DNA of 64,000 bases from Alphaproteobacteria bacterium (GTDB taxonomy: Bacteria; Pseudomonadota; Alphaproteobacteria; CASFRQ01; SAAU01): positions 1-64,000 of the forward strand of contig SAAU01000007.1 of NCBI GenBank assembly GCA_009929265.1, written 5' to 3'. Shown here one piece after another: positions 3,935 through 48,671 of this stretch. Made by a program: the position numbers and the translations under genes. The notes under the pieces were generated by a model. That model ran no database searches and was not told the origin of the DNA. It worked only from the letters and a program-made list of their open reading frames with translations. The stretch's first letter is position 1. The number at the start of each line of letters is the position of its first letter.

Positions 3935-4252
3935 ATGAAAACAATTTTTTTGGGGAGATTCCTTGTGCAACGTTTTATTTTTAGTTTTATTGCTTTTATT
4001 TCCAGCCTCTTACTGATTTTTTTGGTAGGATATATTCTTCTTCCCTTTGTTCTTGTCTTTCTGATTTATTTCCTTTTTGAATCGTTTAGAACACGTTATA
4101 TTTTGAAGAAATTTGTGAGGAACTTTCAAAAGCCTTTCCATGGACAAGAGCCTTTTAATACAGAGGATTTTTCAAATAAAGAAACGGATCCTTTTACAAG
4201 AAAAGAATCCGAAGAAATTATTGATGTTTCTTTTAAGGAAATTGATGACTAG
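3935..4252 (+). CDS. Small membrane protein of unknown function
   Basis: 105 residues. Residues about 12-48 form one long or two closely packed transmembrane segments (FIFSFIAFISSLLLIFLVGY then ILLPFVLVFLIYFLF), followed by a basic stretch and an acidic, probably cytoplasmic tail of about 45 residues ending in EEIIDVSFKEIDD. No family recognised. It resembles many short alphaproteobacterial membrane proteins whose tail ends in an E/D-I-I-D-V pattern. Convergent with the HNH-like gene at 4255, leaving only 2 bp between stop codons. Confidence 0.55.
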   Translation: MKTIFLGRFLVQRFIFSFIAFISSLLLIFLVGYILLPFVLVFLIYFLFESFRTRYILKKFVRNFQKPFHGQEPFNTEDFSNKETDPFTRKESEEIIDVSFKEIDD

Positions 4253-4254
4253 TC

Positions 4255-5763
4255 TTATCTTTGATAGGTTGCAACTCGCGCCTTTTTAATCCGTTGCGCG
4301 CAATTTACCCGATAACGTCCTATGGTGTCTTCCTTTGTTTTTGTGGAAGTAAAGGATTTTTCATATCCCTCTGACGGAAGCAGGAATGCAAATTTATTTT
4401 CGTGTTTTAAAACAACCTCTTGATTAAACTCTGTCCGTACCATTTCTTCAAAATGCTTAATGTTTTTATAGGTTTTTTCATCCACCAAAATTAAATCTGG
4501 AAAAAGAGATTTAAAGGTTTCTTCTGTTTCTATCATCTGCATAATTTCTTTTTCAATTTGGCGAGAAGATTTTTTCGAATATTTTTCTAAATCAAAATCA
4601 AAAGCAACGTCTAGTCCTTCTGAAAAATTTTCCTTTTTAGAATAAATATCGAAACACTCAGGCAATTTACCTTTTTCTAAAGAAAAAATTTCATCATCAG
4701 AAAGATATGCTTTCAATAAGGGCCGGTTAAATCGAACCAACCCCTTCATAAAGGCACGCCGTGCTCCACTTTTAATCTTTTGAAGAGCCTCCTCTTTTGC
4801 AAAATCAAGTTCTTCTTCATCGAAAAAACTATCTTTTTCGTCTTTATCCCAAAAAATATTTTCTTGTTTATTTTTAGACGTATCTTCTTCAGGTTCTAAA
4901 ACCTCTTCAATAGCAAACCCCTCTAAGGCCAAAAGATTCATTTTTTTATTATCTTTTTCAGATCTTTTTTTCAATCTAACCCAAAGAGGCATATATTCAT
5001 TGAAAAGTTTATAAGAAGAATCCGCTTCTTTTTCCAGCCTTTCTAGAAGAGAAATTTGAGGGACCTCTTTTGCCTTTGAAAAAGGGACGAACGGAATCGT
5101 CTGGCCTGTCAAGGCACCATGGAGATACGCATGAATCTTTTTTTCAAAATCCTTTGTCCCTTCTGGGAAAGAGCTCTTCAAGAAAGGCCTTTCCAAAGAG
5201 GAGGCCTTTCTTTCTTCAAAGAAAGGAGCGTATTCAGCCCCATAAAAATGAATCAAAGAGTGCATAGAATTGTTTAGAAAAATAATATTTGGGAAAAGTC
5301 TTGAAAAAGCCTTTTTTTGATAAAGATTTTTTAACGTCTCTTTTTGATCAAAACGCAAAAATTCATAATGAGGTTCTTTTTTCAACCTTTTTTCAGCATA
5401 ACTTGAAACACATTTTGAAATCTGCTCTTCTAAAGAAGCGTCTTCATGAAGGATATTCTTTGCTTTCCATTTTGCAAGAAGTTCGAGATTTAAGCTTTTC
5501 CCGCCCATAGAAATCGGCACAATATGATGGCAGGACCACCCAAAAGGACATTGCCCTTTCTCTAAATAACCAAGCATCTCTTCAGAAAGAAAAGACCGTA
5601 ATTCCTTTTGATAAAGTGAGTATAACCCTTTTAAAAAGATCTCCCGAACGCTCAAAGAGAAAAAAGTATGCTCTTGCTTCGTTTCAAAAGAGGAATGCTC
5701 TTCGCCTAAAATAAGCTTATGAGAAAGTTCTTGAAATTGAAGGAATTCATTTTGTGGGTTCAT
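4255..5763 (-). CDS. HNH-like protein with a duplicated, degenerate second domain
   Basis: 502 residues. The first copy (about 38-182) has the pattern R-x-x-F-L-K-G-L, L-x-x-F-L-S, E-K-G-x-C-P, then CHHIVPISMGG (H79, H80) and, after an insertion of about 75 residues, IIFLNNSMHSLIH (H168, H172). This is the layout of a beta-beta-alpha-metal (HNH) nuclease with a split motif. A second copy (about 334-445) repeats RRAFMKGL, AYLSDDE, LEKGKLPECFD and LFPDLILVD but lacks the HH pair and keeps only one late histidine. Predicted role: nuclease or nuclease-derived protein; activity not shown. It lies 24 bp downstream of a related gene at 5788 in one operon. No secretion signal seen. The DNA target and purpose are unknown. 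Confidence 0.6.
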   Translation of the reverse strand: MNPQNEFLQFQELSHKLILGEEHSSFETKQEHTFFSLSVREIFLKGLYSLYQKELRSFLSEEMLGYLEKGQCPFGWSCHHIVPISMGGKSLNLELLAKWKAKNILHEDASLEEQISKCVSSYAEKRLKKEPHYEFLRFDQKETLKNLYQKKAFSRLFPNIIFLNNSMHSLIHFYGAEYAPFFEERKASSLERPFLKSSFPEGTKDFEKKIHAYLHGALTGQTIPFVPFSKAKEVPQISLLERLEKEADSSYKLFNEYMPLWVRLKKRSEKDNKKMNLLALEGFAIEEVLEPEEDTSKNKQENIFWDKDEKDSFFDEEELDFAKEEALQKIKSGARRAFMKGLVRFNRPLLKAYLSDDEIFSLEKGKLPECFDIYSKKENFSEGLDVAFDFDLEKYSKKSSRQIEKEIMQMIETEETFKSLFPDLILVDEKTYKNIKHFEEMVRTEFNQEVVLKHENKFAFLLPSEGYEKSFTSTKTKEDTIGRYRVNCAQRIKKARVATYQR

Positions 5764-5787
5764 TAGGGGGCTCCTTTTAAATAAAAT

Positions 5788-6489
5788 TTATCTATCTATT
5801 CCATCCAAACTCATTGAGTGGAAGTTTAAAAGATTTTTCTCAGAATTTCTTGATAGAGCAAAAAGTTTTTCCGTTAAAGGGACCTTAATAGAAAAATGCT
5901 CAAAAGATCTAACCTTATGCACCAAAGCACTTTCAATCTGAGGATCGATACAATATCTATGAATTTTATTATGATTTTTGACATTCATCAAAATAAGATA
6001 TCTTGAAAACAAGTTATTAAATCTTTCTTTCCCAATTTCATAAACGTCTTCTGTAGAGGCCCCTCTATATGTCTTTTTAATATTGCGCGGTAAAAGCATA
6101 AAATTAAGAGCTCTTCTCGTTGAACTTCTTTCGCATTCTAAAGATCTTTTAAAAAAACTAGGCATTTCTTCATAATAATAATCAAAAGCCTCTTGAGAAT
6201 AATTTTGCCCCCCTAAATTCCGAGGGATTTGATGATGGATATTAAATCCATTTGGACAATGACCTTCAAGTATCTGTGAATAAACTTCTGGAGAAAAAAA
6301 GGTTTCAATTTGATCTTTATAAAACAGAGCCAATCCCTTTAAAAATAAGCATCGAACATCATTTTTATATTCTGATTCGACGCGATGAGACTCTTCTTTA
6401 AAGGCTAGTTCTACTTCTACTTTTGAAAGGGGGTAAAAATATTCCATCGGAACCTTTTTGTCAGACATTTTAGATATTTCTTGTAGCAT
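5788..6489 (-). CDS. HNH-like protein, single domain
   Basis: 233 residues. Shares with the downstream 502-residue protein the pattern CLFLKGLALFY, FFSPE, LEGHCPNGF, then IHHQIPRNLGG (H85, H86) and, about 80 residues later, YLILMNVKNHNKIH (H173, H177). All four expected HNH-site histidines are present, with an insertion between the two halves compared with colicin-type HNH domains. The family is not one I can name; the nuclease function is inferred from the motif. First gene of a two-gene operon behind a strong promoter. The ATG at 6489 has AAGGAT 6 bases upstream. Confidence 0.6.
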   Translation of the reverse strand: MLQEISKMSDKKVPMEYFYPLSKVEVELAFKEESHRVESEYKNDVRCLFLKGLALFYKDQIETFFSPEVYSQILEGHCPNGFNIHHQIPRNLGGQNYSQEAFDYYYEEMPSFFKRSLECERSSTRRALNFMLLPRNIKKTYRGASTEDVYEIGKERFNNLFSRYLILMNVKNHNKIHRYCIDPQIESALVHKVRSFEHFSIKVPLTEKLFALSRNSEKNLLNFHSMSLDGIDR

Positions 6490-6518: not shown

Positions 6519-6548
6519 ATACTACTCTGTGGGTTAAACTTTTGTCAA
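6519..6548 (-). promoter_or_regulatory. Promoter of the HNH-like operon
   Basis: On the minus strand: consensus -35 TTGACA (6543-6548), 18 bp, -10 TAGTAT (6519-6524). Predicted start about 25 bases before the ATG at 6489. Confidence 0.65.
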
Positions 6549-15099: not shown

Positions 15100-15756
15100 A
15101 TGAAACATATTATTTTGAACGCTCTTTTCTTTTATAGCTTATCTTTTTTGCCTTTACAAGCAGAAGAGTTTTGTGACGCGTCCCTCTTTAACGCGCCTAA
15201 ACTAAACTTTATTGTCAAACAGGAAGAGCCTAAAATCATCTCTATTGACACAAGTGCCATGAAACAAATGGGGCAAAATTCTCCTAAAAATCCAAAAGGA
15301 ATGACCGCATTCAAATTTTCTTTAGATATAAAAAATATGAACTTTTATCAAAAACCTATGGGGAAAAAGGTTTGTATTTATCCAAAATCAATGGATATTC
15401 TTTTTTCTTTGAAAGATTTTTTTGTTTTTATGGATGAAAAATATCCGAAAGACTCGTGCCCCTATCAAGTGATTTTAGAACACGAATCTATCCATGTTGA
15501 GGTGAATAAAAAAGCCTTAAATTTCTTTGCCCCCAGTGTTTATGAGGAGCTTCAAAAAGCTGTCCCTCATTTACCAGCAGGGCTTATTACCTCTGTGTCA
15601 CAAGCCAAGGATTACGCAAAAACCATTGGAAAAGTTTTTCAAGATGAAACAAAAGATGTGCTTGCTTTTATTCAAGGAAAAACAAAAGAAAAAAACAACC
15701 TCATTGATTCAACGGAAAATTATCAGGTACAAACCTCACGGTGTAAAAATTGGTAG
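15100..15756 (+). CDS. Exported HExxH protein, putative zinc metallopeptidase (copy 1)
   Basis: 218 residues with a signal peptide (about 1-21, cleavage after LQA). The mature protein has VCIYPKSMDILFS, then DSCPYQVILEHESIHVEVN, in which H128-E129-x-x-H132 fits the HExxH zinc-binding motif. A cysteine directly precedes the motif and another lies near the C-terminus, a likely disulfide. The next gene is a clear paralogue with the same layout. Predicted to act in the periplasm or at the cell surface; the substrate is unknown. The third metal ligand cannot be assigned by eye. Separated by 14 bp from the paralogue, so probably one operon. Confidence 0.6.
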   Translation: MKHIILNALFFYSLSFLPLQAEEFCDASLFNAPKLNFIVKQEEPKIISIDTSAMKQMGQNSPKNPKGMTAFKFSLDIKNMNFYQKPMGKKVCIYPKSMDILFSLKDFFVFMDEKYPKDSCPYQVILEHESIHVEVNKKALNFFAPSVYEELQKAVPHLPAGLITSVSQAKDYAKTIGKVFQDETKDVLAFIQGKTKEKNNLIDSTENYQVQTSRCKNW

Positions 15757-15770
15757 GGAGGGGCTTTTTT

Positions 15771-16439
15771 ATGAAATTTTTAGCATTCTGCTTTTGCTTT
15801 TTCCCCTTTTTCGCATGGGGTGAAAATTGTCCTTATCCAGAAAAACCTTTTGTAAACGTTTTTCTTCAAGCAAGTGAGCCTGTTTATTCTCACGCCTATT
15901 CTATGGAAGAATTTGCGCTCTTTTCTCAAGAAAATAAAATTGAATCCTTTTCAAATCACAACGCAGACCTTCGAGAACGGGGCGTCACTTTTTTTAAGCT
16001 TCAATCTGATTTAACGTTAGAAACCGAAGCAAAACGCTATAAAAATGGCTTTTGCATTTATCCAAAAACGCTAACGATTAAAATTGGGTTCCCAAAAATG
16101 ATTGTTTTAATTGATAAAAAATATAAAAAGACCTCTTGCGCTTATCAAGAAATCCTAAAGCACGAAAATACGCACGTTCTTATCAATTACAAAACATTGG
16201 AAGAATTTTTGCCTCACTTAAAAGAAGCTCAAGAAAAAATAATGAAAACACAAAAAGGGACCTTTACACGGAACCTTTTTTATGAAAATTCCATTAAACG
16301 TAAATTGACAAAGAATTTTATGGAAAAAAATACGTCTTTTCTTTCCTTTTTAAAAAGCACGCTTCAAAAAAGAAATGGAAAGATTGATACTCTTCAATCT
16401 TATCAAGAGCTTCAAAATCGTTGCACGGATTGGGATTAA
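15771..16439 (+). CDS. Exported HExxH protein, putative zinc metallopeptidase (copy 2)
   Basis: 222 residues, paralogue of the preceding gene. Signal peptide about 1-17 (hydrophobic core AFCFCFFPFFAW). Shared features: FCIYPKTLTIKIGFPKM, then TSCAYQEILKHENTHVLIN with H131-E-N-T-H135, and a C-terminal cysteine. The longer frame from TTG at 15750 is not used, because GGGAGGGG lies 7 bases before the ATG at 15771. The two proteins are well diverged outside the HExxH core, so the duplication is old. Convergent with the gene ending at 16445. Confidence 0.6.
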   Translation: MKFLAFCFCFFPFFAWGENCPYPEKPFVNVFLQASEPVYSHAYSMEEFALFSQENKIESFSNHNADLRERGVTFFKLQSDLTLETEAKRYKNGFCIYPKTLTIKIGFPKMIVLIDKKYKKTSCAYQEILKHENTHVLINYKTLEEFLPHLKEAQEKIMKTQKGTFTRNLFYENSIKRKLTKNFMEKNTSFLSFLKSTLQKRNGKIDTLQSYQELQNRCTDWD

Positions 16440-43641: not shown

Positions 43642-44856
43642 TTGTTTAAATCTAAACAATTTTCAAAAAATATGTTTATCCTCGTTTTATGGAGTTGGAT
43701 TTACCTCTATTGGCTACGCTTTTTTCTCTATCGAAATTGGTATTTTGATTTCGCATGGGCGGACGATTGGGGATACGTTTGGAATGAATGGCTCTCAGGT
43801 TGGATTATCCATTCTGTCAGTGATTGGACGTTTATTTTCACTATTTTTTCTGCCGTTCCTTTTTGGCTTATTGGATATTCTCTTCTTATTTCTTTAGATT
43901 GGTCTCTTCTTTGGGAAAAAGGGCCGAAAAAGCTTTTCTTTTGGTTTTCGGGGGCAAAGGACAAGAAAATTCTTCCTCAAAAACCTACTTTTGCAAAAAA
44001 GCCTTCTCATTTAAAAGTGCGTCCTCCCGCTTTACAGATTGGCGAAGCGCGTGCGATTAAGGAACCAAAAACGCCTCCTCCTCAAGCAGAAGAAGCATTT
44101 GAGCCTTCTTTTGGGAAAAGAATTTCTGCCCCTAGACGAGAGGTGGAAGAAACAGAACCTTATTCCTTTATTGATAAAGATATTGAAAAATCGTTTAACA
44201 AATCCTCTTTTGATGATTTCTTGAAAAAAGAAACAAAAGAACAGCCTCTTCCTGTGCCAGAAACCCCTTTAGCCAGTTTGGATGAAGATATTTTTCCAAA
44301 ACCGACTTTAAGAGAGCCTCCTGCCGTTGAAATTAAAGAAGAAATTCAAAACAAACAAGATATTTTAGAAGATATTGAATCTCACTTAAAAGAAAAGAAA
44401 TATACTGTGCTCTTGGATATTCTTTTCGACGGATACCGCCTTGACTTCATTGCTTTAAGTCAAGAAAAGCTTGTCCTTGGAAAATTGGATTCCGAAAAAG
44501 GAGATTGGCTTGCAGATGAAGAGCAATTTAATGATGACGATCCGCTTTGGTTCTCTGAAAGCTCTCATCGCATCAGCCCTATCTTTGAAATTCAAAAAAT
44601 TAAAGCCACTTTATCTCAAAAACTTAAAGAAAATGGGATAAAAATGGATGTAGCCTCTTTACTTGTCATCTATAAAGGGGATATTATCAATGTCGAGGAT
44701 ATGGAAGAAACTTGGAAAGATTCTGAGGTAGCTGTTGTTCGAACAAACGAAAAAGCCTCTGAAGATCTTCCTTTCTTCAAAGATGCTTTTGCTGACACTG
44801 TCTCCCCTATTGATGAGGCAAAACGAGATCAACTTGAAAAGATATTAAGAGGGTAA
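43642..44856 (+). CDS. Membrane protein partner of the VirD4-like ATPase
   Basis: 404 residues. Two membrane helices (about 11-29 and 62-85) at the N-terminus, a low-complexity acidic and proline-rich linker (about 110-230), and a C-terminal globular domain (about 245-390) with YTVLLDILFDGYRLDFIALS and LVLGKLDSEKGDWLADE. The last segment is weakly reminiscent of PD-(D/E)XK folds, but no ExK triad is clear. No family recognised. Start is TTG at 43642, with AGAGGG four bases upstream. It ends one base before the VirD4-like gene, so the two are translationally linked and probably form a complex. Confidence 0.55.
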   Translation: MFKSKQFSKNMFILVLWSWIYLYWLRFFLYRNWYFDFAWADDWGYVWNEWLSGWIIHSVSDWTFIFTIFSAVPFWLIGYSLLISLDWSLLWEKGPKKLFFWFSGAKDKKILPQKPTFAKKPSHLKVRPPALQIGEARAIKEPKTPPPQAEEAFEPSFGKRISAPRREVEETEPYSFIDKDIEKSFNKSSFDDFLKKETKEQPLPVPETPLASLDEDIFPKPTLREPPAVEIKEEIQNKQDILEDIESHLKEKKYTVLLDILFDGYRLDFIALSQEKLVLGKLDSEKGDWLADEEQFNDDDPLWFSESSHRISPIFEIQKIKATLSQKLKENGIKMDVASLLVIYKGDIINVEDMEETWKDSEVAVVRTNEKASEDLPFFKDAFADTVSPIDEAKRDQLEKILRG

Positions 44857-44857
44857 T

Positions 44858-47056
44858 ATGGCCTATAGCCGGAAAGATTATTCAGATAATGACAAAGCCG
44901 TTGTATGGGTCTTTTGGACTGTAATTATTTCCTTTGTTGTTCTTTATGTGACCGCGATTTTGGCCATGCCTATTGCATACATTATTGGAAATGGGCTTAG
45001 CCGTGAGACGCTTTCAGAGGGATTTGAATTTATTAAAAGGGCAACACTTTCTCCTATTTTCCTCGTAGAGACCTATTGGAATTGGTTTACAAAGTTCCTC
45101 AAAATACAAGGAACTCCGACATTTGCAATGTATTTACCAATCTTTCCCTTCCTACTTGCTATTTTATCAGCCATGATTGGACTTCTTATTAACCCTTATG
45201 GGTTTCTCCCCACAACTTTCGGAAGTGGACGAAAAGCTGAATATGCCGATATTAAAAAGATGAAACTTTTTAACGGGTTTATTATTGTTCTTGGGAAATT
45301 TAGAGGAAAACTCTTAAAACTTCCTGAAACGCTTTCTGCTTTGGCCGTCGCGCCTCCTGGAACAGGAAAAACAGTTTCTGTCGTTATTCCAACCATTTTG
45401 GAATCTAAAGGCATCAGTATTATCGTGAACGATCCAAAGCCTGAACTTTGTTATTTAACTTCTGGCTATCGTGCTTTAGAAGGTCCTGTTTTCGTCATTA
45501 ACTGGGGGGCCGAGGACGAGCCTCAAAAGAATCTTTACTTTCCAAGTTGGAATCCATTATCGCCTTCCTGCCTCCCATCTATGGGGCCTTCCAGAGATAT
45601 GTATATTGATAGTATGGTGACTGTTTTGGTTGAAGAACCTAAAGGGGGGGCTGATCCTCACTGGTCTAAAACAGGCCGAAATGCTATGGCTGGATTTTTG
45701 CATTTTATTTCCAGTAAGTGTGAACGAGCTCGGGCTAACGATTACTTTATTAATACTTTTATGGAAAAAGGACGTCTTTCATCGGATGACGCTTCTGTTC
45801 TTGAAACCTATTATATGGATATGCCAGATGTCAGTTCAAAAATGGCTTTAGACGCTCTTCGAAAAGGAGAATTGACGGCCGACAATTACGTTCCTGTTGG
45901 ATCATGGGAAGGCCTTCCTGAATATTGGCATGGCGCCGAACCTTGTATTGCTATGATTTTGGATTGGTTAAACGATACCCAAATGAAAATTGCAGCGGAT
46001 ATTAAGCGTCGTATTGATGAAGGGGATCAAATGGCAGCTCTTGCTGATCCAATGAGAGATACTTTAGATTTAGCTGTTTCCGAATGTAAACGATTTGGAT
46101 ATTCACAACGGGCTATGCTTGAAATGAATCAGTTAGCCAGTACCCCTGATAAAGAACGGGGATCTATTTTATCCACGGCTTTAACTGGAATTGGGATTTT
46201 CAAAAACTCTGCTGTCCGGGCTCGAACACGTTTTAGTGATTTTAAGTTTAGAGATTTGCGTGGCATTAAAGATCCCATTACAGGGGAACTGAAACCTATT
46301 TCTGTTTACCTCAGTGTGAACCAAGTTGACGCCCGCGCTTTAAGTGTTATTACCGGAATTTTTGTGGAGTTAATGTCTTCCTTCTTGATTGCAAATCCGC
46401 CTAACTTTATTGGAAGTGACGGCGTTAAATCAGGACCATTCCCTGTTTTATTTGTGCTCGATGAATTTCCTCAAATGCCAAAATTAGCCGCTGTAAAAGA
46501 CGGCCCTGCTGTTGGACGTGGACAAAAAGTGTCTTACCTTTTAATTGGACAGGATTTGGGACAGATTTCTGGGCAATACGGGAAGGATGATTTGGAAACA
46601 ATCATTACCACAACAGCTGCTAAAATTATCTTAGCTCAAAACAATGAACAAACAGCCCAACGTTTTGAAAAGATGATTGGTTCTAAAACAATTGAAGTTA
46701 AATCTTCTTCAAGGACAGAAGGCTGGTCAAAAGCGGCCAATCCTTTTGCGGCCAATATTTCTAGATCTTTGCAATCTTCTTCTGTTGTCGGGGCCTCTGA
46801 GATGATGAGTTTGCCAAGCACAAAGCAAGTTGTGATTATGCAGGGGTTCTTAAATCGCCCTATTATGGCCGATTCTCCACGATGGTATTTAGATCCTAAA
46901 ATGAAGAAAAAATGTGCTATTCCAGCTTCTCCATTTGTTCCGGACTGGGCCGTTGCTAGACGGGAAGAAATGGGACAAAAAGAATCTGTTAAAGTTGCAA
47001 ATAATTTAAAAGAGCTTTCAAAAGATGAAGGCTACACTTACGATGATGAAGGCTAA
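44858..47056 (+). CDS. VirD4/TraG-type type IV secretion coupling ATPase
   Basis: 732 residues. Two N-terminal membrane helices (about 15-40 and 92-112), then FGSGRKAEYADIKKM, Walker A APPGTGKT (165-172), a conserved NDPKPELCYLTSGYR, and Walker B PVLFVLDEFPQMPKL (D535-E536). This is the VirD4 family that recruits protein or DNA substrates to type IV secretion systems. No relaxase and no VirB genes are in the window, so the secretion channel must be encoded elsewhere if it exists. SD AGAGGG precedes the ATG. Confidence 0.88.
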   Translation: MAYSRKDYSDNDKAVVWVFWTVIISFVVLYVTAILAMPIAYIIGNGLSRETLSEGFEFIKRATLSPIFLVETYWNWFTKFLKIQGTPTFAMYLPIFPFLLAILSAMIGLLINPYGFLPTTFGSGRKAEYADIKKMKLFNGFIIVLGKFRGKLLKLPETLSALAVAPPGTGKTVSVVIPTILESKGISIIVNDPKPELCYLTSGYRALEGPVFVINWGAEDEPQKNLYFPSWNPLSPSCLPSMGPSRDMYIDSMVTVLVEEPKGGADPHWSKTGRNAMAGFLHFISSKCERARANDYFINTFMEKGRLSSDDASVLETYYMDMPDVSSKMALDALRKGELTADNYVPVGSWEGLPEYWHGAEPCIAMILDWLNDTQMKIAADIKRRIDEGDQMAALADPMRDTLDLAVSECKRFGYSQRAMLEMNQLASTPDKERGSILSTALTGIGIFKNSAVRARTRFSDFKFRDLRGIKDPITGELKPISVYLSVNQVDARALSVITGIFVELMSSFLIANPPNFIGSDGVKSGPFPVLFVLDEFPQMPKLAAVKDGPAVGRGQKVSYLLIGQDLGQISGQYGKDDLETIITTTAAKIILAQNNEQTAQRFEKMIGSKTIEVKSSSRTEGWSKAANPFAANISRSLQSSSVVGASEMMSLPSTKQVVIMQGFLNRPIMADSPRWYLDPKMKKKCAIPASPFVPDWAVARREEMGQKESVKVANNLKELSKDEGYTYDDEG

Positions 47057-47083
47057 TTAAATTTCGTTAAAAAAGGATTTTAA

Positions 47084-47866
47084 ATGTGGGATTGGTCAAA
47101 GAAAAATAAAGATTTATCAAAATGCTCTTCTTTGCCTTTTCGAGAAAAAGAATCTCAATCGCAGCCAATTCCCCTGATTGATCCTCCTAAAAAAAGGCTC
47201 TTATTGCGAAAACTCTCTTCTTTTGAATCTTCAAAAAATTCATCGCTGATTGAACTTCGAAAAAAAATTGTTCAATCAGAAAAGATTCTTCCTTCAAGAA
47301 AACTCAAACAAAAACATTTTGGAAATTCAACTCTCTGGATTGAAAAATTTAACCAAATGTACTTTCCAGGAATGGACCTTATTCAAGTCAGGCTTAAAAC
47401 TCTAAAAGGATTCGATTCTCTTTCGTTTAAAAAAGTTTATCAGAAGAAACGTCGTGAGTTTTTATTTTATCTTGCCGAGAATTATAAAAACGATTTACGC
47501 TCAGCAGGCATTGATGAGGAATCTATCCTTTTACTTTCCAAAGGTATCATCAATGAAAATCACCAAATTCACCTAAAAATCCCTCCTTACTACGGCGGGA
47601 CAATAGATTTTTCGAATATGATTTTAATACAGACACATCCTTATCATGAAGAAATCCACACCTTTATCAATGAGCAAATTGCTCCTTTTGAAACAAGTTA
47701 TCTTCCTGATTTACTTTATTTACCTTATCCTAGAGGAAAAGTTTTTGTCCCTCCTTCGCTTTACACAGGATCTGGGGGAAAAGGAAAACATGATAGAAGT
47801 GCTTTTGCTGGATATTCTTTAGATGCCTATAAAAAAATATCTATAAAAACAATGCCGGGACGCTAA
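47084..47866 (+). CDS. Colicin-like HNH protein (putative secreted nuclease toxin)
   Basis: 260 residues. C-terminal half has IHLKIPPYYGG (H163, L164), DFSNMILI (N178) and PYHEEIHTF (H188, H192), matching the spacing of colicin E7/E9-type HNH DNases, with the metal-binding His triad kept. The His that acts as general base in those colicins is Leu here. The N-terminal 100 residues are basic and probably extended; no known translocation domain. No signal peptide. Two bases upstream of an SMI1/KNR4 gene and 27 bp behind the VirD4-like gene, so toxin function is inferred from context. Related to the genes at 4255 and 5788. Confidence 0.6.
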   Translation: MWDWSKKNKDLSKCSSLPFREKESQSQPIPLIDPPKKRLLLRKLSSFESSKNSSLIELRKKIVQSEKILPSRKLKQKHFGNSTLWIEKFNQMYFPGMDLIQVRLKTLKGFDSLSFKKVYQKKRREFLFYLAENYKNDLRSAGIDEESILLLSKGIINENHQIHLKIPPYYGGTIDFSNMILIQTHPYHEEIHTFINEQIAPFETSYLPDLLYLPYPRGKVFVPPSLYTGSGGKGKHDRSAFAGYSLDAYKKISIKTMPGR

Positions 47867-47868
47867 TC

Positions 47869-48315
47869 ATGATAAAAGATTTACTTGAATTTATTTACAA
47901 AAAGAAAGGTCTTCTTTTTAAACCTGTTGAACAAGAGGGGAAAAAAGAACTTCTCGATTATTTTGAAAAAATAAAAGCCCCAAAGCTACCTTTAGAATAT
48001 TTTAAGCTTCTTTCCCTAACAGATGGCATCAGCTTTTCAGGGATAGAGCTTTATGGATTTCAATCTCATGATAGGGAAATAAAATCTTACACCTTTCCCT
48101 CCTTAAAAGAAGTCAACTTTCAATATCGAACAATGAGTTGGTCAAAAAAACTTCTTGTTCTTGGCCATTTTTCAGAGGAAATGATTGTCTTTAATTATGA
48201 ATTGGAACAATTTGAATTAAGGGATAGGTTTGATTTAAGTTTAAGTTATGCGGCAAAAGATTTAGAAGAGTTCCTTCGTGAAATTTTAATCATTCAGATT
48301 GAAGAAATAAAATGA
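47869..48315 (+). CDS. SMI1/KNR4 (SUKH/YrhA-like) protein, putative immunity protein
   Basis: 148 residues. KLPLEYFKLLSLTDGISFSG and IELYGFQSHD match the SMI1/KNR4 fold (YrhA-type pattern). SUKH proteins are known immunity partners of secreted nuclease toxins, often HNH. Here it follows the HNH gene after 2 bp, which fits. No signal peptide, so cytoplasmic. Overlaps the start of the next gene by four bases (ATGA). Confidence 0.7.
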   Translation: MIKDLLEFIYKKKGLLFKPVEQEGKKELLDYFEKIKAPKLPLEYFKLLSLTDGISFSGIELYGFQSHDREIKSYTFPSLKEVNFQYRTMSWSKKLLVLGHFSEEMIVFNYELEQFELRDRFDLSLSYAAKDLEEFLREILIIQIEEIK

Positions 48316-48671
48316 TATCTTACATAAAACGCCATTTTAAAGGGGAATTTTCCATAGCCCAAAGCTTTTGGATAAATTTTATTTGTGTTAACTTTTCTTT
48401 TAATTTTTTAGCGACTTTTATTGCCTTAAGCTTTAAGGAAGATAAAGAAATTTTTTCCTATTTCATCTTAAATCTTCAGCTGTTAACTTGCCCTATCTCC
48501 TATTGGCAAAGCTTTGGCATTTATCAATCTTACCTAAAACATAAAGCCCAAATGAAAATACCTTTTTGGGGGCTTTTGGCTTCAATTTTGAGCTTCTTGT
48601 CTTTTTTTGGAAGTATCTATGGGGTTCTTATTCTTCTTTTTGGGGTTGAACCCACATCCCTCCTGAAATAG
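48312..48671 (+). CDS. Small polytopic membrane protein of the operon
   Basis: 119 residues, three to four membrane helices: FSIAQSFWINFICVNFSFNF, LATFIALSF, FILNLQLLTCPISYW, LLASILSFLSFFGSIYG. The KGEFSIAQSFW start and the YWQSFGIYQS segment are reminiscent of widespread proteobacterial membrane proteins with an FxGxxSLxxSFW motif. Fifth gene of the operon, translationally coupled to the SMI1/KNR4 gene. Its role is unknown. Overlaps the anmK 3' end by 44 bp in convergent orientation. Confidence 0.5.
   Translation: MISYIKRHFKGEFSIAQSFWINFICVNFSFNFLATFIALSFKEDKEIFSYFILNLQLLTCPISYWQSFGIYQSYLKHKAQMKIPFWGLLASILSFLSFFGSIYGVLILLFGVEPTSLLK

What the first reader, a model, noticed from the sequence alone, without database searches (positions are those of the whole stretch)
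4255..6489. HNH-like operon with a tandem duplicated domain whose second copy lost its histidines
The 502-residue protein contains two copies of the same domain; copy 1 keeps HH and the late H-x3-H, while copy 2 keeps the surrounding pattern (F-M-K-G-L, L-S-D-D-E, L-E-K-G-x-x-P, L-F-P-D-L-I-L) but not the HH pair. A single-domain relative precedes it. Duplication with inactivation suggests a regulatory, dimerising or decoy domain. A consensus -35 drives the pair.
Basis: partly seen in the sequence, partly recalled or inferred. Interest (0 to 1): 0.6.

Follow-up and report, generated by a model that had tools for sequence, protein, structure and literature searches.

The report
Tandem HNH nuclease with dead copy
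A two-gene cluster in a small-genome alphaproteobacterium encodes bacteriocin-like DNA-cutting (HNH) domains, one protein carrying a working-looking copy fused to a copy that has lost its active site; the live-plus-dead pattern recurs in distant relatives, and a separate dead version sits next to a type IV secretion gene in 19 sampled genomes, which suggests that the dead domains have a job.

Summary
P (4255-5763, -) holds two copies of one domain. Copy 1 keeps HH (79-80) and H-x3-H (168/172); copy 2 has lost all four (YS at 374-375) but still matches profiles built without it (E 4e-5). Q (5788-6489, -) is a single-domain relative. The cluster is syntenic in another genus (G001: malQ-Q-M-P-S12-S7-EF-G), where the P orthologue (28% identity) again has a dead second copy. 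The domain is HNH of colicin/pyocin type: family profiles match solved HNH nucleases (Cas8f-HNH 5e-8, pyocin AP41 1e-4), and a homologous domain in L020 passes the Pfam HNH cut-off. No library names P or Q.

The family occurs in 23 of 385 Alphaproteobacteria sampled. Three patterns stand out: each of the five tandem proteins (three lineages) has exactly one dead copy; 19 of 19 VirD4-linked members (including window 47084-47866) have lost the second (general-base) His and sit beside VirD4 and a SUKH-like gene; all 40 remaining domains have HH.

Best reading: Q and P copy 1 are nucleases of a type-IV-secretion-linked, toxin-like family; copy 2 is a retained pseudonuclease used for docking or binding. 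Nuclease activity, secretion and docking are inferred. New variant of a known kind.

The parts
5788..6489 (-). Q: 233-aa single-domain HNH-like protein; HH at residues 85-86, late H-x3-H
5932..6366 (-). Q HNH-like core (residues 42-186)
6232..6237 (-). HH pair of Q (codons 85-86)
   Evidence: sequence
4255..5763 (-). P: 502-aa protein with two HNH-like copies
5230..5658 (-). P copy 1 core (residues 36-178), catalytic-type residues intact
5524..5529 (-). HH pair of copy 1 (codons 79-80)
5248..5262 (-). H-x3-H of copy 1 (codons 168-172)
4429..4773 (-). P copy 2 core (residues 331-445), degenerate: all four His positions lost
4639..4644 (-). Y374-S375 of copy 2 where the family has HH
4258..4317 (-). 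C-terminal basic tail of P (last 20 residues, net charge +7)
6519..6548 (-). sigma-70-like site TTGACA-18-TAGTAT upstream of Q
43642..44856 (+). Membrane protein with NERD-like domain, first gene of the VirD4-linked module (PF08378 E 0.0011, just under the curated cut-off)
44858..47056 (+). VirD4-type type IV coupling protein (PF02534 E 7.5e-58)
47084..47866 (+). R: VirD4-linked HNH paralogue; keeps first His, Asn and H-x3-H, second His replaced by Leu (IHLKIP)
47869..48315 (+). SUKH-like protein (candidate immunity protein or R partner); Pfam and PDB matches sub-threshold

Best explanation
Q and P belong to a lineage-specific family of colicin/pyocin-like HNH (beta-beta-alpha metal) nucleases found, in the genomes sampled, in Alphaproteobacteria and mostly in small genomes. 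Q and copy 1 of P keep the HH...H-x3-H metal/general-base set and should cleave nucleic acid (inferred from residues). P arose by joining two copies of the domain; copy 2 lost every catalytic and metal residue before or around the split of two genera, yet kept its predicted fold and its place (shown), so it has probably been kept as a pseudonuclease module that binds DNA, the partner domain or a delivery or immunity component (inferred). The family is tied to a VirD4-type coupling protein: in 19 of the genomes sampled a paralogue lacking the general-base His lies directly downstream of virD4 and upstream of a SUKH-like gene, and family members carry basic C-terminal tails of the kind reported in type IV secretion signals. 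The likeliest overall mechanism is therefore a set of toxin-like nucleases handled by a type IV secretion apparatus, with dead HNH domains (in cis in P, in trans as R) acting as docking or regulatory partners. Delivery, docking and the target are not shown.
For: Homology of the copies and loss of the four residues. Same architecture, same dead copy and same gene order (glgB-glgX-malQ-Q-[M]-P ... S12-S7-EF-G) in G001 at 28% identity. Family profile against PDB: Cas8f-HNH 5.3e-8, maturase HNH 4.7e-5, pyocin AP41 1.2e-4; the P/Q profile alone ranks Cas8f-HNH (0.0089) and colicin E9 (0.15) first; L020 copy 2 passes Pfam HNH (33.8 bits against a cut-off of 21.4). His table: VirD4-linked 0/19 with HH (18 H-x, 1 ML); others 40 HH; the only five exceptions are one copy in each of the five tandem proteins. 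VirD4-linked members form one group (94/83, 97% of 200 bootstraps); SUKH-like gene directly downstream in 18/19 and one ORF further in the last. C-termini: Arg in the last three residues 39/54 vs 67/308 in neighbouring genes, Fisher p 1e-12; net charge of last 20 +3.0 vs +0.2. T4SS context in own genome: VirB4, small membrane ORFs resembling VirB2 beside it (read by eye), VirD4. In colicin E9 His103 is the general base and His102/His127 bind the metal (PMC2816704); a folded domain plus a positively charged tail is a known T4S signal in alphaproteobacterial substrates (BID domain, PMC6509941).
Against: No activity data. P/Q have no adjacent SUKH-like gene, unlike six of the 35 non-VirD4-linked members, so a kin-directed toxin would be unprotected locally. 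Q lacks a strongly basic tail (net 0). VirB9, VirB10 and the PF03432 relaxase were not found in the genome with Pfam models, so the secretion apparatus is incomplete or divergent. Foldseek on both AF2 models found nothing significant. The dead copy is C-terminal in P but N-terminal in L020/L057 and L079, which weakens a positional docking role. Copy 2 diverges faster than copy 1 (26% vs 37% identity across genera). The C-tail test counts paralogues as if independent.
Confidence: 0.5

Rival explanations
1. P and Q are intracellular HNH nucleases (DNA processing, defence or nucleic-acid turnover), not secreted; copy 2 is a DNA-binding or pseudo-dimer half that places the single active site, giving a nickase-like enzyme.
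For: Located among housekeeping genes (malQ, S12/S7/EF-G) in both genera; no adjacent SUKH-like gene; Q lacks a basic tail. One live and one dead copy per tandem protein in three lineages fits a pseudo-dimer.
Against: No PADLOC match. Family relatives are bound up with VirD4 and SUKH-like genes and with paralogue arrays, and most carry basic C-tails.
Confidence: 0.22
2. Copy 2 is an in-cis inhibitor or decoy: it occupies the partner or DNA surface of copy 1, or binds an immunity protein, so that the nuclease is silent in the producer.
For: No dedicated immunity gene beside P/Q; dead and live copies always occur together in tandem proteins; SUKH-like genes follow the tandem proteins L020, L057 and L079 and all VirD4-linked dead HNH proteins.
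Against: Q and G001 M have intact HH and no dead partner in cis. The AF2 model gives no confident contact between the copies (linker pLDDT below 50, pTM 0.35).
Confidence: 0.15
3. Copy 2 is a decaying relic of a tandem duplication with no present function.
For: Faster divergence and total loss of catalytic residues.
Against: Retained in frame with the same predicted topology in two genera whose proteins are 28% identical, and recurrent in other lineages, while no single-domain member outside the VirD4-linked group has lost HH.
Confidence: 0.08

Closest known systems
Colicin/pyocin DNase HNH domains (Tox-ColE7, PF21431 Col-Pyo_DNase; colicin E9, pyocin AP41)
   Same: HH ... N ... H-x3-H layout, preceding helices, L-x-x-G-x-x-P lead-in; SUKH immunity is on record for Tox-ColE7 (PMC3482391 table 2).
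   Different: P/Q have a 50-80-residue insert between GG and the second strand, no receptor or translocation domains, a tandem dead copy, and sub-threshold Pfam scores; Tox-ColE7 is listed with T2SS, T5SS, T6SS, T7SS and pyocin S, not T4SS.
HNH endonuclease superfamily (PF01844)
   Same: L020 copy 2 and L079 188-aa members pass the Pfam cut-off; both are homologous to P/Q through the family profile.
   Different: P and Q themselves do not match any Pfam or NCBIfam model.
Inactive GHH domain of teneurins
   Same: Precedent for an HNH/EndoVII toxin domain that lost its histidines and was kept for another role (PMC3482391).
   Different: Eukaryotic adhesion protein, different HNH clade, single domain.
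BID-domain T4S substrates of Alphaproteobacteria
   Same: Folded domain plus positively charged C-terminal tail recognised by the VirD4 coupling protein (PMC6509941); used here as an analogy.
   Different: Different domain; no BID match found in P/Q (Pfam scan).
X-T4SS antibacterial effectors such as Stenotrophomonas TfdA/TfcB
   Same: Precedent for nuclease effectors delivered between bacteria by a T4SS (PMC11253643, abstract).
   Different: Not compared by sequence here; no shared C-terminal recognition domain known; P/Q have no adjacent immunity gene.

Membership tests
HNH endonuclease (beta-beta-alpha metal), PF01844 | Match to the family profile above cut-off | tested here: not met
   P and Q themselves: no Pfam hit. 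Homologues L020 copy 2 (33.8 bits) and L079 188 aa (22.6) pass 21.4
HNH endonuclease (beta-beta-alpha metal), PF01844 | Sequence relationship to solved HNH nucleases | tested here: met
   Family profile that includes P copy 1 and Q: Cas8f-HNH 5.3e-8, maturase HNH 4.7e-5, pyocin AP41 1.2e-4
HNH endonuclease (beta-beta-alpha metal), PF01844 | Metal/general-base residues HH ... H-x3-H present | tested here: met
   Met by copy 1 and Q; not met by copy 2
HNH endonuclease (beta-beta-alpha metal), PF01844 | beta-beta-alpha fold | tested here: inconclusive
   AF2 gives strand-insert-strand-helix in both copies; Foldseek finds no significant match
HNH endonuclease (beta-beta-alpha metal), PF01844 | Nuclease activity | not testable with these tools
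   needs biochemistry
Colicin/pyocin DNase (PF21431) | Match above cut-off | tested here: not met
   Best in relatives E 0.02, 15.5 bits against a cut-off of 27
T4SS substrate | Basic C-terminal signal | tested here: inconclusive
   P +7, orthologue +6, M +3, Q 0; enriched over the family
T4SS substrate | VirD4-dependent transfer | not testable with these tools
   needs experiment
Toxin-immunity pair | Adjacent immunity gene | tested here: not met
   No SUKH-like gene next to P/Q; met by R and by tandem relatives L020, L057, L079
SUKH superfamily (window 47869-48315) | Match to SUKH profiles | tested here: inconclusive
   SUKH_5 E 0.024 and SUKH_6 E 0.042 in window, SUKH_6 0.0029 in L020, best PDB hit Lin2918 E 0.016; all sub-threshold

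The most novel reading that the evidence does not exclude
Dead HNH domains are the organising principle of an undescribed type IV nuclease delivery system: a single-copy, VirD4-linked pseudonuclease (R) serves as adaptor or chaperone at the coupling protein, HH-intact paralogues are its cargo nucleases, the SUKH-like protein guards the complex, and tandem proteins such as P carry their own pseudonuclease partner in cis.
Probability: 0.2. Interest if true: 0.85.

Novelty: new variant of a known kind. Interest (0 to 1): 0.6.

Why it matters
HNH toxins are a well-catalogued nuclease class, but I found no description of an HNH family organised around a VirD4 gene, nor of repeated pairing of one live with one dead HNH domain. 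The His table (0/19 VirD4-linked, exactly one copy per tandem protein, 40/40 elsewhere) makes a specific, cheap hypothesis testable: that loss of catalysis has been selected for a partner role. It would also point to a little-studied possible route of interbacterial or host-directed nuclease delivery in Alphaproteobacteria that include gut lineages.

Tried and rejected
Chance resemblance of the two halves: rejected. Assembly or gene-fusion artefact: rejected by the syntenic orthologue in another genus. Known Pfam, NCBIfam or PADLOC family for P/Q: none. Relatives in viral contigs: none confirmed with the A5 profile; the A3 profile could not be scanned. Structure-based identification: Foldseek on full P and on copy 2 gave only chance-level hits. 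Wider spread in the phylum: besides the window's own genome only one further match, also Alphaproteobacteria, in 399 genomes. Placing copy 2 in the tree failed because of very long branches, so whether copy 2 derives from copy 1, Q or another paralogue is open. Literature searches for T4SS with HNH and SUKH, VirD4 with HNH, and dead tandem HNH toxins found no description of this arrangement.

Full report
WHAT IS THERE. On the minus strand, after glgB, glgX and malQ, lie Q (5788-6489, 233 aa) and, 24 bp on, P (4255-5763, 502 aa). P contains two copies of one domain. The copies match each other weakly but above chance (BLASTP 2.9e-4; no shuffle of 1000 reached the score), and copy 1 matches Q at 1.6e-12. 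Profiles that exclude copy 2 still find it, and profile-profile comparison of the two copy-2 sequences with four HH copies gives E 3.4e-8. Copy 1 has H79-H80 and H168-x3-H172, invariant with Q, the G001 orthologue and the extra G001 gene. Copy 2 has YS at 374-375 and no aligned late histidines. AF2 predicts the same order of elements in both copies, with pLDDT about 80-90 over most of copy 2. Models rest on only 5 and 2 sequences, and Foldseek gave no significant match to either, so the fold claim rests on sequence plus predicted topology.

CONSERVATION. The one other genome of the family that was available (G001, a different genus; the same contig is CASFRQ010000147.1, uncultured Alphaproteobacteria) has the orthologous cluster: a 468-aa P with HH in copy 1 and FF in copy 2, a 254-aa single-domain protein M, and a Q-like reading frame cut by the contig end, next to S12, S7 and EF-G. 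A second G001 contig ends with glgB-glgX-malQ followed by the beginning of a Q-like protein. P proteins are 28% identical, copy 1 cores 37%, copy 2 cores 26%.

WHAT FAMILY. P and Q match nothing in Pfam or NCBIfam. A profile of the wider family matches solved HNH nucleases: Cas8f-HNH 5.3e-8, maturase HNH 4.7e-5, pyocin AP41 1.2e-4, colicins E9/E7 0.05-0.7. With P/Q-type sequences only, the same HNH proteins rank first but weakly (0.0089, 0.15). L020 copy 2 passes Pfam HNH. In colicin E9 the first His of HH (102) and His127 bind the metal, and the second His (103) is the general base (PMC2816704). The same paper reports that a general-base Ala mutant of HpyAV kept about 1% activity, so loss of the second His alone need not abolish cleavage.

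THE WIDER PATTERN. The profile hits 23 of 385 Alphaproteobacteria, mostly genomes of 0.9-2.4 Mb; in a phylum-wide sample of 399 only the window's own genome and one further alphaproteobacterium matched. From the fetched loci I tabulated the HH positions. (a) Nineteen members directly follow a VirD4 gene and precede a SUKH-like gene, usually with a NERD-like membrane protein upstream; they form one group in the domain tree, come one per genome from 19 genomes, and none has HH: 18 keep the first His, one (L080) neither. Asn and the late H-x3-H are largely kept. The window's own copy is R (47084-47866). (b) Forty other domains have HH. (c) The five remaining domains are exactly one copy in each of the five tandem proteins: P, its G001 orthologue, L020 and L057 (copy 1 KH, copy 2 HH), and L079 (copy 1 RR, copy 2 HH, next to a single HH protein). 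Tandem proteins thus represent three lineages, and the dead copy is C-terminal in one and N-terminal in two.

C-TERMINI. Members end in basic tails: Arg in the last three residues in 39/54 versus 67/308 neighbouring genes, net charge +3.0 versus +0.2. This is in keeping with T4S signals (PMC6509941) but treats relatives as independent and is not proof. P has +7, Q 0. The own genome has VirB4 beside small membrane ORFs that look like VirB2 (by eye), and VirD4; VirB9, VirB10 and PF03432 relaxase models found nothing.

INTERPRETATION. Shown: homology, duplication, loss of catalytic residues in copy 2, conservation of that state across two genera, recurrence, and linkage of a related dead HNH to VirD4 and a SUKH-like gene. 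Inferred: nuclease activity of Q and copy 1, secretion, and the role of the dead copy. I favour a docking or regulatory pseudonuclease within a T4SS-linked nuclease family. The lack of an immunity gene beside P/Q keeps an intracellular or an in-cis-inhibited nuclease alive as rivals. The SUKH assignment is itself sub-threshold.

NOVELTY. HNH toxins, SUKH immunity and inactive toxin-derived HNH domains (teneurin GHH) are known (PMC3482391). Their arrangement here, with VirD4 linkage and one dead plus one live copy, was not found in the papers searched. New variant of a known kind.

Noticed in passing
window 43642-48315: Four-gene module NERD-like membrane protein, VirD4, HNH paralogue without the general-base His, SUKH-like protein; the VirD4-HNH-SUKH-like part recurs in 19 sampled alphaproteobacterial genomes from nine families. 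Arguably more striking than the finding itself.
   Followed up: yes
L080:4271-5230: A VirD4-linked HNH paralogue that has lost both HH residues (ML) and the late H-x3-H yet keeps its place in the module, suggesting that catalysis is not what is conserved.
   Followed up: partly
L052, L053, L066, L068, L070: Arrays of two or three neighbouring HH-intact HNH paralogues; the L052/L053 arrays lie beside recurrent genes in two genomes, without a recognised immunity gene.
   Followed up: no
window 3935-4252 (+): Small hydrophobic protein with an acidic C-terminal half, convergent with P; a related ORF lies at the same place in G001. Possible but unsupported immunity candidate.
   Followed up: no
window 48312-48671 (+): Membrane protein after the SUKH-like gene; a similar-sized protein follows in G001 (L017 2747-3133).
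   Followed up: no
G000 contig C39 1-4300 (L092): Three consecutive small membrane proteins resembling VirB2 pilins (read by eye) upstream of VirB4; VirB9 and VirB10 not detected by Pfam models.
   Followed up: partly
window 15100-15756 and 15750-16439: Adjacent paralogous secreted proteins, each with an HExxH-like motif (HESIH, HENTH), perhaps DUF922-type; read by eye only.
   Followed up: no
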